64,000 nt of DNA, from assembly GCF_013401515.1 (NCBI RefSeq), contig NZ_CP058529.1, forward strand, positions 2,666,001 to 2,730,000. Reading direction: 5' to 3'. Both the position numbers and the translations under genes were made by a program. This document shows, piece by piece, positions 31,424 through 36,342 of the stretch. The first letter of the stretch is position 1. The number at the start of each line of letters is the position of its first letter. Source of the stretch: Halorarum halophilum (GTDB taxonomy: Archaea; Halobacteriota; Halobacteria; Halobacteriales; Haloferacaceae). The notes under the pieces are model-generated. The model had not been told where the DNA came from, searched no databases, and saw nothing but the letters and a program-made list of their open reading frames with translations.

Positions 31424-31699
31424 GGCGGTACCGTTTCGCCGTCTCAGTTCGAGACTCCTCGTTCTCGGCAAGGTCCGTCGACCGCGATCCGGTTCGGGGT
31501 CGCTCTGCTCCACGTTGTCAGCCGGTTTTCGATTCAGGCGTAGGGGCAGTGCGGTACAGAGTGACCTGAAATCACGAATCAGTCGGAGGCGTGCTGAGGC
31601 GGGACTTTCGTGGAACGAACACGGATGAGACCGCCCGTCGAGCACGTGAGCAGCACCCTCACAGAAACAATAAGTTACTCGCGTTCGAGCCGTACAAAT

Positions 31700-33229
31700 A
31701 TGCCGGATGACATGTACGGACGACTACTCTATAGGCGCGGGTTCTTACTCTTCGAAAGGGGGAGCGGCGTCGACCCGCCTGCTCCGATCGACGAGTGGGA
31801 CACGGAGACGCTCGACCGGTTTCTCCTCCGGACGCACCCTGAACTCCGGTACTCCAGGGCCGAGAGGAGAGGCGTCGACGTACTGATCCTCGGTCGGGTG
31901 TTCGACCCGATCAACGGCGTCTCCGATCCGGAGACCATCTTGAATACCATGATCGACCGGCTAGGTGAATCTGACAACCGGTTCTTCGACTATCTGGACC
32001 ACCTCAGCGGCCGGTTCGTCCTGCTCGTGGAGGAGGACGATCGCGCGTTCGCGCTGCAGGATGCCACCGGCAACCAAGCCCTCTTCTACGACACCGATTC
32101 CCGAGGCTGCCGGCTCGCCTCCCACCCCGAGATGCTCACCGAAATGGGCGGATACGAGCGAACGGACGGCGCGGAGACGATTCTGGACGCCGAGGCGCCG
32201 TGGTTCCCGGGCGCCGCCACCTCGTACGCCGAGGTCAAACTGTTGACCCCGAACACGTTACTCACGCTCCCCGACTCCGAGGTCATGAGGTTCTTCCCAC
32301 GCGGGCCGCTCCCCTCGAACCCACTGACGGACGAACTGGTCCGTGAGGTCGCCGACATCTTCGAGACCTCGGTGGAACTCCTCCACCGGGAGGCGGATCT
32401 GTCGCTCTCGCTGTCCGCCGGCCTCGACAGCAGGTTGAGTCTGGCCGCAACCCGGAACGTCTCGGACGACGTGTTCTACAACACGTGGGCGACCGGTGAG
32501 GCCGACAAGGAGATGGGGACGGTCATGGAACTCTGCGAGAACCTGGGCATCGACTGTGCGATCACGGACCTCTCCGAAGGCCCCGATGACGAGTTCCTGG
32601 AGGTGTTCACGCGGAACACCTCCGGGATGTCGCGGTGGAACCGCGCCCGAAACGCCTACAACCTCTATCATCGGGACAAGCCCGCCGAGGATGCGGTCGA
32701 GATCAGATCGAACGTCTCGGAGATCGCCCGGACGTTCTACCGCGATCGGTTCACGTTCCTGCCCGACGAGGTGCGCGCCGAGACGTTCGCGAAGCTGTAC
32801 GCGTACGAGGCCCAGTCCGACTACGTGCAGGGGAAGTACCGGGAGTTCATCGACACGACCGACTTCTCGGGAGAGAACCTCTACAACTACGATATCTACG
32901 ACATGTTCTACTGGGAGTGCCGGATCGGCTGCTGGCTCTCCCTGTGGTTCCTGGAGACGAGCATCGCCCAGGAGGAGGTCTCGCTGTTCAACAACCGACA
33001 CCTGCTGAAGAAGATGCTGTCGGTGCCGTACGAGCGCCGCCGGAGCGACGAACTCTTCTATCGGGTCATCGAGGAGTTGTGGCCCGACTGCCTGAGCGCA
33101 CCTATCAATCCACACAAGGAATCTCGTTTCAAGGGTGCCGACCAGCTAGATCGGTTCCTCTCCGGGGCGATACTCAGGGCGCCGGCGCCGGCGTACATGA
33201 CGATCCGAAAAATGCGACGGAAAATCTAG
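31700..33229 (+). CDS. Asparagine-synthetase-like protein without the glutaminase Cys
   Basis: A 509-residue protein. The N-terminal 190 residues look like the Ntn-hydrolase domain of AsnB (LSGRFVLLVEEDDRAFALQD, then a G-N-x-A-L-F-Y segment), but the chain begins MPDDMYG and so lacks the catalytic Cys2. The C-terminal part has the PP-loop LSLSAGLDSRLSLAA (residues about 233-247) and later RRRSDELFYRVIEELWP. It may use ammonia or ligate another acid; similar genes occur in archaeal surface-polysaccharide regions. The start is chosen for ATAAGTTA 24-31 bases upstream. Codon bias is weaker and AT content higher than in flanking genes, suggesting transfer together with the broken NosD gene downstream. 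Confidence 0.8.
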   Translation: MPDDMYGRLLYRRGFLLFERGSGVDPPAPIDEWDTETLDRFLLRTHPELRYSRAERRGVDVLILGRVFDPINGVSDPETILNTMIDRLGESDNRFFDYLDHLSGRFVLLVEEDDRAFALQDATGNQALFYDTDSRGCRLASHPEMLTEMGGYERTDGAETILDAEAPWFPGAATSYAEVKLLTPNTLLTLPDSEVMRFFPRGPLPSNPLTDELVREVADIFETSVELLHREADLSLSLSAGLDSRLSLAATRNVSDDVFYNTWATGEADKEMGTVMELCENLGIDCAITDLSEGPDDEFLEVFTRNTSGMSRWNRARNAYNLYHRDKPAEDAVEIRSNVSEIARTFYRDRFTFLPDEVRAETFAKLYAYEAQSDYVQGKYREFIDTTDFSGENLYNYDIYDMFYWECRIGCWLSLWFLETSIAQEEVSLFNNRHLLKKMLSVPYERRRSDELFYRVIEELWPDCLSAPINPHKESRFKGADQLDRFLSGAILRAPAPAYMTIRKMRRKI

Positions 33230-33419
33230 TCACGAGCTTCACAACCGTCGATTCGAAGGGACACGTCTCGTGGCTGTATCGGTCTCCGCCAGTCGTCCAT
33301 AGCACGTCAAACTGCACCTACGGGAGGGAAGCGGCCTTCTCGGTAAGACCATTCGAGACCCGTCAGTTGACCATTTATCGTATGTATGAGGAAGTGTCAG
33401 TCGGTCGATTCGAGAGTCG

Positions 33420-34789
33420 ATGGCACGCAGAGTGAACGCGATCGCGTTGAGCGCGATCATGGTCGTATCACTGTTCGCAATGAGCGCAGTGGCGATATCA
33501 GGAACGGCACAGCAAACGGAGACCATAGCACCGACGGAGATCACCGACTGTACGACGATCGATTCGCCGGGTCACTACGTCCTGGCCCAGGACATCGTTC
33601 GAACGGACGAGGGCCCGTGTATCAGTATCTAGGCGAGTGACGTCACGCTCGATGGTGACGGTCACACCCTTGACGGAAACACTACCGACCAGGGGACCGA
33701 TCGGCATGGAGTCGCGACGAGCGCCGCCAACCCCGTCGACAACGTAACCGTCACAAACATCACCGTTCGAGACAGCGCGGACAACATTCGGTTCGAGGCC
33801 GTGACCGAGGGACGGATCACGAACGTCTCGACTCTGGCTCCGGAATCCACTAGCGTCGTCGTCCGTGGGTCGGATCGCGTCGAAATCAGCGACAGCCGCA
33901 TCGAGGGGTCATTCGTGGGGAATGGGCTCTCAATCAGCAACTCGGGGAACCTGAGCGTCGCGAACAACACGTTCAACGATGGATACTTCACGATTGTAGC
34001 GTCGGGGATGAACTGGTCCGTGATACGCGGCAACACGTTGGGCGGCACGTCCACGGCGATCAACCTCGCTAGCGGGACCAGCAACGTAATCTCCAACAAC
34101 ACGATCCAGGGTCGCACTGACGAGGCCATCGTGGTCGGCGGCCGCGACAACGGGGTAATCGGGAACACGATCACGCTCGGTCACGACGGGATCGTCGTCT
34201 CGGGGTCTAATCACACCATCTCGGACAACCACGTGGATCGGATGACCGGATGGGCCGCCACCGCCGAAGGGGTCAACCACACGTTCCGGAACAATAGTCT
34301 CAGCGGCGGTGAGCCCGAGGGAGCGTCGGGCGGCGCGCTCCGTATCAGCGGCGAGGAGCATGTAATCGAGAACAACTCCCTGAACGGATTCAACGGCGTC
34401 TACGTCGCCAGTGCGACTGGACCGATCTCGATCGAGAACAACTCGATGAATGGGTTCCGGCACATCGTGGTCGCCGAATCGAAGCTCTGCCCCGACCCCG
34501 GCGTGGTCGTCACGGCGCACGGGACGTCTTCGATCCCATGCCGCCGAGCTACCAGGGGGAGATCCACTACGGTATCCTGAACCACGACGACGACATGGTG
34601 AACGCCACGAACAACTACTGGGGCGCGAGCGACGGTCCCTCCAGTCCCGACGGGGAGAACGTCACGGACCCCGTGACGGGCGAACCCGCGAACGGGAGCG
34701 GCATGCCCGTCTCCGAGGGCGTCCACTTCGACCCCTACCTTGAACAGCCGCCCGAGAACGCGGGAGTCGGCAACGAGACGGCCCCCTGA
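33420..34789 (+). pseudogene. Broken NosD-type right-handed beta-helix surface protein
   Basis: The start MARRVNAIALSAIMVVSLFA is a signal peptide. After EGPCISI an in-frame TAG (33630-33632) interrupts the frame, and the same frame continues at once as ASDVTLDGDGHTLDG. It runs through about nine N-x-T/N-N-T-type helical turns (GNTLGGTSTAINLASG, GNTITLGHDGIVVSG). Near 34,500-34,540 the reading frame must slip by one base, after which PPSYQGEIHYGILNH and ATNNYWGASDGPSSP complete a normal NosD C-terminus ending at 34789. So there are two lesions, one nonsense and one net one-base loss, about 900 bases apart. A sequencing error could explain one but hardly both. Base composition is AT-richer than the core. 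Confidence 0.8.
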
Positions 34790-34851
34790 TCGGGACTATC
34801 TCAAGTCGGGAAGCCGCCGATTTTTCCGCCCTCCGCGACCACCCCGATGCA

Positions 34852-35184
34852 GTGCCCACAGAGTACGACAAACTGGTCCGCGACCGCATCCCCGAACTCG
34901 TCGAGACGAACGGCGAGACGCCCGTCACCCGCCGGGTCGAGGGCGAGGAGTACGGCGACTACCTGGCGGAGAAACTCGTCGAGGAGGCGCGCGAGTTCCG
35001 CGACGCACGGGCGACGGACGGGGAGGACCCGGACGCGGAACTCGCGGACGTGCTGGAGGTCATGGAGACGCTGCTCGACCGCGGCGACCGCGACCGGGTG
35101 CGTCGACTCCGGGAGGAGAAGGTCGCCGAGCGCGGCGGATTCGCCGAGGGGATCGTCCTCGAACGGGTCGAGGACGGGGGCTGA
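34852..35184 (+). CDS. MazG-like nucleoside triphosphate pyrophosphohydrolase
   Basis: A 110-residue protein from a GTG (MPTEYDKLVRDRIPELVETN). The Y-D-K-L-V-R-D-x-I-P-E opening and LAEKLVEEAREFRD ... PDAELADVLEVMETLLD, with the E-E-x-x-E and D-x-x-E metal-binding pairs, place it in the all-alpha NTP-PPase group near HisE/MazG. It probably removes non-canonical NTPs. I choose this GTG because the pattern begins directly after it. A five-base gap from an overlapping, unsupported ATG at 34847 in another frame was noted. It is followed 69 bases later by the M29 peptidase gene on the same strand. Confidence 0.85.
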   Translation: MPTEYDKLVRDRIPELVETNGETPVTRRVEGEEYGDYLAEKLVEEAREFRDARATDGEDPDAELADVLEVMETLLDRGDRDRVRRLREEKVAERGGFAEGIVLERVEDGG

Positions 35185-35253
35185 GACGGGGTCGGAGTCG
35201 GCGAGGGGTCGCCATCCGAAACCGGTAACTCCCGCCGTCCGAACCTCAAGGCA

Positions 35254-36342
35254 ATGGACCCCCGAATCCGCGAACACGCAGAGACCATCGTCGACCACTC
35301 GATCGAGCTCGAGGCCGGCGACGACCTCGTCGTCCAGATGCCGACCGAGGCGGCCGACCTCGCCGCCGCGATCCACGAACTCGCGGGTGACCGCGGCGCG
35401 AACCCGGTGTTCCTGAACAACGACGACCGGGCCCAGCGGGCGTTCATGCGCGCCCGCGGGGACGACTTCGAGACGCCCGAGCACCAGCTCGCGCTGTTCG
35501 AGGAGGCCGACGCGTTCGTCATCGCGCGGGCGGGCGGCAACGTCGCCGAGAAGTCCGACGTGGACCCCGAGACCACCGCGGCGTACAACCGCGCGTTCCG
35601 GCCGGTCCAGCGGGAGCGGCTCTCGAAGCGCTGGTGTCTCACCCAGTACCCGACCCGCGGACACGCCCAGCTCGCCGGGATGAGCACCGACGCGTACGAG
35701 AACTTCGTCTGGGACGCCGTCTCGCTCGACTGGGAGGAGCAGGGCGAGTTCCAGGCGGAGATGGTCGACCTGCTGAACGACGCCGACGAGGTCCGCATCC
35801 GGTCCGGCGAGGGGACGGACCTCACGATGTTCATCGCTGGCAACACCGCCATCAACGACGTCGGGAAGAAGAACCTCCCGGGCGGCGAGGTGTTCACCGC
35901 GCCGGTGAAGGACTCCGTAAACGGCGAGGTCCACTTCGATATGCCGCTGTACCGGCAGGGCCGCGAGATCGAGGACGTCCGCCTCCGGTTCGAGGACGGC
36001 CGCGTCGAGTCGTTCTCCGCCGAACGCAACGAGGACGTCCTAGAGGGCGTGTTCGACACCGACGAGGCCGCCCGCTACCTCGGTGAACTCGGCATCGGGA
36101 TGAACCGCGCCATCGACCGGTTCACCTACAACATGCTGTTCGACGAGAAGATGGGCGACACCGTCCACATGGCCGTCGGCAGCGCGTACCCGGAGACCGT
36201 GGGGGAAGGGAACGAGGTGAACGAGTCCGCCGAGCACGTGGACATGATCGTCGACATGAGCGAGGACTCGGTCATCGAACTCGACGGCGAGGTCGTCCAG
36301 CGGGACGGGACGTTCACGTTCGAGGAGCGCGAGGCCGAGTGA
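35254..36342 (+). CDS. Aminopeptidase, M29 family (thermophilic metalloaminopeptidase)
   Basis: A 362-residue protein of M29 length (family about 360-415). It begins MDPRIREHAETIVDHSIELE, as members do. Features near the C-terminal half are IRSGEGTDLTMFIAG, NLPGGEVFTAPVKDSVNGEV (a conserved metal-ligand Glu) and ELGIGMNRAIDRFTYNMLFDEKMGDTVHMAVG, with the His and Asp ligands in VDMIVDMSED. It is a cytosolic two-metal aminopeptidase of broad specificity. The gene ends in a run of E/A codons, followed by a repetitive gagcgaagcg/gaggcg stretch of about 100 bases. Confidence 0.93.
   Translation: MDPRIREHAETIVDHSIELEAGDDLVVQMPTEAADLAAAIHELAGDRGANPVFLNNDDRAQRAFMRARGDDFETPEHQLALFEEADAFVIARAGGNVAEKSDVDPETTAAYNRAFRPVQRERLSKRWCLTQYPTRGHAQLAGMSTDAYENFVWDAVSLDWEEQGEFQAEMVDLLNDADEVRIRSGEGTDLTMFIAGNTAINDVGKKNLPGGEVFTAPVKDSVNGEVHFDMPLYRQGREIEDVRLRFEDGRVESFSAERNEDVLEGVFDTDEAARYLGELGIGMNRAIDRFTYNMLFDEKMGDTVHMAVGSAYPETVGEGNEVNESAEHVDMIVDMSEDSVIELDGEVVQRDGTFTFEEREAE

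What the first reader, a model, noticed from the sequence alone, without database searches (positions are those of the whole stretch)
33420..34789. Double-lesion NosD-like pseudogene or recoding case
An in-frame TAG at 33630-33632 and a one-base slip near 34,500-34,540 break an otherwise continuous beta-helix gene. Frames on both sides of each lesion stay protein-like, so decay is recent. Phase variation of a surface protein, or a population variant, is an alternative. TAG is not pyrrolysine here as no pyl gene is visible in the window.
Basis: seen in the sequence. Interest (0 to 1): 0.5.

Follow-up and report, generated by a model that had tools for sequence, protein, structure and literature searches.

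The report
Broken, gene-converted archaeal beta-helix gene
A salt-loving archaeon carries a recently broken copy of a secreted beta-helix protein gene, part of which was exchanged with an intact sister gene before one of the two breaks occurred; this is an ordinary pseudogene with a useful internal clock, most likely not a recoded gene.

Summary
The frame from ATG 33420 meets TAG at 33630-33632 and shifts by one base near 34521-34524; the gene's end is TGA 34787-34789. A congener (G002) has an intact orthologue at the syntenic place, and the window's own genome has an intact paralogue 1.2 Mb away.

New here: window 34223-34635 is 99.0% identical to that paralogue, against 72.8% upstream (33420-34222) and 65.2% at the 3' end (34721-34786). 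This is a bounded ectopic gene-conversion tract, and the frameshift lies inside it. The simplest reading is that the frameshift is younger than the exchange and recent compared with the species split. The TAG lies outside the tract and is not dated.

Recoding is disfavoured: no PylS over cut-off, no CUA-anticodon tRNA recognised at the 70 tRNA matches, TAG is an ordinary terminator in the window, and readthrough alone would not cure the frameshift. No simple repeat sits at either lesion.

A second beta-helix gene in this genome also has one in-frame TAG, and another copy lacks its 5' half. Best reading: recent pseudogenisation in a small, sporadic family of secreted beta-helix proteins that undergo gene conversion. 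Raw reads and proteomics could not be checked.

The parts
33420..34789 (+). Broken gene for a secreted right-handed beta-helix (NosD-domain) protein; syntenic with an open 456-aa orthologue in congener G002
33420..33512 (+). N-terminal haloarchaeal signal-peptide-like segment (TIGR04207, 25.7 bits, cut-off 24.6; residues 5-31 matched)
33630..33632 (+). In-frame TAG (lesion 1), codon 71; outside the gene-conversion tract
34521..34524 (+). One-base frame change (lesion 2): one base fewer than in all three aligned homologues
34223..34635 (+). Gene-conversion tract shared with the paralogue at own genome C1:1478.5-1479.8 kb (99.0% of 407 aligned columns identical); right end ragged, 91.8% over 34636-34720
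33368..33419 (+). Conserved upstream segment (39 of 52 bases equal to the paralogue, 32 of 52 to the orthologue), possibly the promoter
   Evidence: role inferred
31610..33229 (+). Upstream flanking gene, weakly asparagine-synthase-like (below the curated cut-offs); syntenic in G002
34852..35184 (+). Downstream flanking ORF (110 aa, no Pfam match at E 0.1); syntenic in G002
35254..36342 (+). Downstream flanking gene of the M29 peptidase family; syntenic in G002

Best explanation
The locus is a recent pseudogene of a secreted beta-helix protein in a haloarchaeon. Shown: an open gene sits at the same place in a congener; in this genome the copy has a premature TAG and a separate one-base frame change; a tract of about 0.4 kb was exchanged with an open paralogue on the same chromosome by ectopic gene conversion, and the frame change lies inside that tract. 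Inferred: the frame change arose after the conversion, because conversion from an open partner would have removed it and conversion to the partner would have copied it. Standard translation from the ATG gives a 70-residue product, a signal-peptide-like segment and a short stub; the open paralogues probably cover whatever the protein does (a secreted or surface beta-helix; ligand or substrate unknown). The age of the TAG relative to the frame change is not known.
For: Syntenic open orthologue in G002 and open paralogue in own genome. Stops inside: only the window copy among the 6 match rows (170 genomes, own included) and the 13 (391 genomes, own included). Tract: longest window-paralogue run is 49 polymorphic sites, 34230-34448; 0 of 10000 shuffles reach it, largest shuffled run 17. 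Inside the tract the tree joins window and paralogue (UFBoot 100) and rejects window+orthologue (AU p 0.0026 and 0.0057). Since the exchange only 2 substitutions in 98 codons (34224-34517; dS 0.014) against dS 0.363 to the orthologue. Recoding tests negative.
Against: Upstream of the tract the window+orthologue grouping is favoured but not firmly: AU p for the alternative is 0.038 with the truncated copy L012 and a duplicate row included, 0.157 without them, so orthology there rests mainly on synteny. The shuffle test is not specific by itself: the longest runs of the other two pairs (11 and 8 sites) are also rare in shuffles (6 and 1 of 10000), because agreement is clustered along the gene. 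Loss of constraint is not shown: polarised codon changes are 5 N:3 S and 13 N:8 S on the window branch against 2:5 and 9:11 on the orthologue branch, small numbers and no test made. A second TAG-interrupted beta-helix gene in the genome is what a recoding view would predict. No reads were available.
Confidence: 0.85

Rival explanations
1. Assembly or consensus error makes one or both lesions.
For: No reads available; the second lesion is a single-base indel, a common kind of consensus error (recalled).
Against: 33 of 34 other comparable frame pairs in the window end together with the congener's (the exception looks antisense). The indel is not in a long homopolymer. The TAG is not an indel. 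The tract differs from its paralogue at several sites, so it is not simply a mis-assembled copy.
Confidence: 0.07
2. The TAG is read through or decoded as an amino acid (stop recoding), with a programmed frameshift downstream, giving a full protein.
For: Downstream frames remain protein-like; a second beta-helix gene in the same genome also has a single in-frame TAG, with open counterparts in both congeners.
Against: PylS best match 22.1 bits against cut-off 178.15. No CUA anticodon recognised at the places of 70 tRNA matches; a chromosomal tRNA-Trp was not among them, so intron-bearing tRNAs may be missed. TAG ends 13 of 36 counted frames in the window and 13 of 36 in the congener (the 36 include two fragments of this gene and at least one likely spurious frame). 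The orthologue and the paralogue have sense codons at the place. Readthrough alone would not cure the frame change.
Confidence: 0.03
3. The broken copies serve as a sequence reservoir: gene conversion among paralogues swaps segments and can repair or re-break the window copy (a slow, archaeal surface-protein variation system).
For: A clear recent conversion tract spans the frameshift site; a 5'-truncated third copy is about 91% identical to the window over 34590-34720; several copies exist in one genome.
Against: The exchange made two copies more alike rather than more diverse; the TAG lies outside the tract; no expression site was identified and no strain variation could be looked at; the family is sporadic (2 of 170 genomes at 1e-30, own included).
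Confidence: 0.05

Closest known systems
PF05048 NosD / PF13229 Beta_helix domain proteins
   Same: Read-through window protein and its open homologues exceed both Pfam cut-offs.
   Different: Far below the NosD subfamily cut-off (TIGR04247: 30.3 bits for the window, 43 for the orthologue, cut-off 300); none of the three flanking genes tested is recognised as a nos gene.
Intermolecular gene conversion between genome copies in Haloferax volcanii (PMC11276520; search listing, start of abstract and passages seen)
   Same: Same class of process, in a haloarchaeon.
   Different: There between copies of the same chromosome in a polyploid cell; here between paralogues 1.2 Mb apart that are about 73% identical outside the tract. 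The words 'ectopic' and 'non-allelic' occur 0 times in its main text; I did not read the whole paper.
Pseudogene-fed antigenic variation by gene conversion (vls, VSG; titles and abstract openings, otherwise recalled)
   Same: Broken or truncated copies beside intact copies, with conversion tracts.
   Different: No expression site identified, no evidence of variation, and the tract makes copies more alike.

Membership tests
Pseudogene (recently inactivated gene) | Intact orthologue at the same genomic place | tested here: met
   G002:C1:512904-514271, same flanking genes on both sides
Pseudogene (recently inactivated gene) | Disabling lesions relative to intact copies | tested here: met
   TAG 33630-33632; one-base frame change near 34521-34524
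Pseudogene (recently inactivated gene) | Relaxed constraint after the lesions | tested here: inconclusive
   Window branch 18 N:11 S codon changes, orthologue branch 11 N:16 S over 33420-34221 (sums of its two rows); no significance test
Pseudogene (recently inactivated gene) | No full-length product | not testable with these tools
   Needs proteomics
NosD nitrous oxide reductase maturation protein | TIGR04247 cut-off | tested here: not met
   30.3 bits (window read-through) and 43 (orthologue) against 300
NosD/Beta_helix domain proteins | Pfam gathering scores PF05048 and PF13229 | tested here: met
   52.2 v 23.6 and 64.7 v 25.9 bits
Right-handed beta-helix fold | Three-dimensional structure | not tested
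   No structure was predicted; rests on profile matches
Haloarchaeal secreted proteins with surface-glycoprotein signal | TIGR04207 cut-off | tested here: met
   25.7 v 24.6 bits; orthologue 28.5, paralogue 27.7; the further open copy P0005 has no such match at E 0.01
Ectopic gene conversion | Bounded tract of high identity between paralogues with changed tree topology | tested here: met
   99.0% inside, 72.8% and 65.2% outside; 0 of 10000 shuffles; AU test inside the tract; topology upstream of the tract not significant once L012 is dropped
Pyrrolysine/stop recoding | PylS or CUA-anticodon tRNA in the genome | tested here: not met
   intron-bearing tRNAs may be missed
Slippage phase variation | Simple repeat at the lesion | tested here: not met
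   The two tandem arrays found in 33000-35200 lie elsewhere; no repeat family covers either lesion; none seen by direct reading

The most novel reading that the evidence does not exclude
Haloarchaeal beta-helix surface-protein copies form a conversion network in which broken and truncated copies exchange segments with intact ones, so that a lesion such as the frame change here can be gained or erased by conversion: a reversible pseudogene, and a possible archaeal counterpart of cassette-based surface variation.
Probability: 0.05. Interest if true: 0.6.

Novelty: new member of a known kind. Interest (0 to 1): 0.24.

Why it matters
It is an ordinary pseudogene, but the conversion tract gives an internal clock: a haloarchaeon exchanged DNA between paralogues 1.2 Mb apart and about 73% alike, and one of the lesions is most simply younger than that exchange. 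It also cautions against reading an in-frame TAG in such a gene as pyrrolysine or recoding without looking for intact copies.

Tried and rejected
Pyrrolysine or suppressor decoding: PylS family search; a pattern search for CUA anticodon arms (16 matches in the 4.28 Mb genome, 11 for the reversed control pattern; none called as a CUA tRNA by ARAGORN); and the places of the 70 Rfam tRNA matches, read with ARAGORN. Two of these are doubtful: L123 was not called by ARAGORN and I read its anticodon as UCU by eye; L136 was called as anticodon AAC, which I doubt, and did not reach the gathering score when searched alone; by eye its presumed loop holds no CTA.

Slippage phase variation: no repeats at the lesions. 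Plasmid origin: no match among plasmids, and the locus is syntenic in G002. Viral relatives: none confirmed. Named genomes: the first scan of genome contigs confirmed none; a second with an alignment gave 8 loci, the best a Halobacteriales MAG at 53% over residues 204-454; I could not name the window's organism from these.

Direction of the conversion: dS from tract to orthologue is 0.363, like the rest of the window copy before the tract (0.33-0.36) and below that of the paralogue before the tract (0.48-0.60); the truncated copy L012 branches outside orthologue+window+paralogue (75-76% bootstrap). This leans to the window locus as donor but is weak, and I do not claim it. The shared CTAGGCGA context of the two TAGs: that 8-mer occurs twice in the window against 1.42 expected, so it is no evidence by itself. 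No solved structure matched the orthologue by sequence at E 0.01. No structure was predicted.

In some searches L037 and L045 were represented by the same ORF (duplicate row), and L012, which lacks the 5' half, was kept in the upstream block. One search dropped the duplicate from both blocks and L012 from the upstream block, which weakened the upstream topology test (p 0.038 to 0.157). IQ-TREE failed (thread setting) and was rerun. In one search BLAST warned that it ignored letters in its query line; that table was used only as a pointer. One search (upstream gene in G001) found nothing and has no positive control.

Full report
Observation. The frame from ATG 33420 meets TAG at 33630-33632 and continues open from 33633; the conserved C-terminus lies in another frame, up to TGA 34787-34789. 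Alignment with three homologues (two open, one 5'-truncated) puts the frame change at a one-base gap near 34521-34524.

Homologues. In the window's own genome (4.28 Mb, 4 contigs) a search with the read-through protein gave 8 match rows, the window itself included. The nearest other copy is C1:1478497-1479822 (minus), open (71% aa identity over residues 1-375; range). Others are C1:2815822-2817171 (minus), open, and C1:28431-29189 (minus), which lacks the 5' half; its similarity begins 0.1-0.2 kb after a tRNA-Val gene. In congener G002 the orthologue is open, 456 aa, between the same neighbours: an asparagine-synthase-like gene, a 110-aa ORF and an M29-family peptidase gene. The third genome of the genus, G001, has no match at 1e-30 and two weaker ones. 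At 1e-30, 2 of 170 genomes of the family match, the window's own included; at 1e-20, 9 of 391 drawn from the class, own included. Of the 6 and 13 match rows of these two calls, only the window copy has a stop inside.

Gene conversion. Over 33420-34222 the window equals the paralogue at 72.8% of 782 aligned columns and the orthologue at 79.9%. Over 34223-34635 it equals the paralogue at 99.0% of 407 columns and the orthologue at 76.9%. Over 34636-34720 the window-paralogue figure is 91.8%, and over 34721-34786 it is 65.2%. The longest run of agreeing polymorphic sites is 49 (34230-34448); none of 10000 shuffles reached it, and the largest shuffled run was 17. The longest runs of the other two pairs, 11 and 8, are also rare in shuffles (6 and 1 of 10000), so rarity in shuffles alone is not specific; the size of the run is. 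In the tract block the tree joins window and paralogue and excludes window+orthologue (AU p 0.0026, or 0.0057 after removing a duplicate row). In the upstream block window+orthologue is favoured; the alternative has AU p 0.038, or 0.157 after dropping the duplicate and the truncated copy, so that part is not decisive by tree and rests on synteny. I read this as a bounded ectopic conversion tract.

Order of events. The frame change lies inside the tract while the paralogue is open there. If the paralogue had been the donor it would have overwritten an older frame change; if the window had been the donor it would have passed one on. The simplest reading is that the frame change is younger than the conversion (inference). 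In 34224-34517 only 2 substitutions separate window and paralogue (dS 0.014), against dS 0.363 to the orthologue, so the frame change is recent compared with the species split. The TAG is outside the tract and is not dated. Direction leans weakly to the window locus as donor and is left open.

Constraint. Before the tract, polarised codon changes on the window branch are 5 N:3 S and 13 N:8 S, on the orthologue branch 2:5 and 9:11: compatible with slightly relaxed constraint or with none, untested. Upstream of the ATG, 39 of 52 bases equal the paralogue and 32 of 52 the orthologue; a promoter role is inferred.

Recoding. PylS scores 22.1 bits against a cut-off of 178.15. At the places of the 70 tRNA matches no CUA anticodon was recognised; two places were doubtful and read by eye (L123; L136). 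A chromosomal tRNA-Trp was not in the list, so intron-bearing tRNAs may be missing. TAG ends 13 of 36 counted frames in the window and 13 of 36 in the congener (the set includes two fragments of this gene and at least one probable antisense frame). No repeat sits at either lesion.

A second case. C1:1626993-1628060 (minus) in the same genome is another beta-helix gene with one in-frame TAG, between a start that looks by eye like a signal peptide and the mature part. Its counterparts in G001 (78%) and G002 (73%) are open, and of the 9 match rows in 60 genomes only this one has a stop. With the window gene and the 5'-truncated copy, three of about ten loci with NosD-domain matches in this genome (15 match rows) are damaged; not all of the others were inspected. 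I read this as turnover in a dispensable secreted-protein set; it is also the one fact that keeps a TAG-recoding idea alive.

Membership. The window protein and its close homologues exceed the NosD and Beta_helix Pfam cut-offs; the window, orthologue and nearest paralogue exceed the haloarchaeal signal-peptide model; none reaches the NosD subfamily cut-off. They are secreted beta-helix proteins by profile, not NosD. No solved structure matched the orthologue by sequence, and no structure was predicted.

Literature. Searches of the open library: 'gene conversion'+'haloarchaea'+'paralog' 19 papers (12 listed); 'haloarchaea'+'pseudogene'+'NosD' 0; 'archaea'+'antigenic variation'+'gene conversion'+'surface protein' 24 (10 listed); 'pseudogenes'+'Halobacteria'+'premature stop codon'+'frameshift' 2 (listings only). 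Passages of PMC11276520 were seen: it treats conversion between genome copies in Haloferax volcanii.

Verdict.

Noticed in passing
own genome G000 contig C4 (148,857 bp), L086 and L137; tRNAs at C4:46225-59106: An array of 31 ARAGORN-called tRNA genes (25 + 6) beside genes matching phage clamp-loader, DNA ligase and DNA polymerase families. The only DNA matches among phages are at tRNA genes where annotated: Halogranum tailed virus 1 (143,855 bp; 2% of the query) and Streptomyces phages (which searched 8,000 bases of L086). Looks like a large tailed archaeal virus, perhaps like HGTV-1, carried in or with this genome.
   Followed up: partly
own genome C1:1626993-1628060 (minus), L027: Second beta-helix gene with a single in-frame TAG; counterparts in both congeners are open.
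   Followed up: partly
own genome C1:28431-29189 (minus), L026: Copy of the same family without its 5' half, starting shortly after a tRNA-Val(TAC) gene; about 91% identical to the window gene over window 34590-34720.
   Followed up: partly
window 33629-33636 and L027: Both TAGs sit in CTAGGCGA, although CTAG is depleted in the window (23 found, 52.8 expected). The 8-mer itself is not enriched in the window.
   Followed up: partly
G352:C11:302737-305572 (L037, L045): Two adjacent open copies of the family in tandem in another haloarchaeal genome, a likely substrate for conversion.
   Followed up: no
window 31610-33229: The asparagine-synthase-like neighbour gave no match in congener G001 (no positive control), so gene and neighbour may be a shared lineage-specific block.
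   Followed up: no
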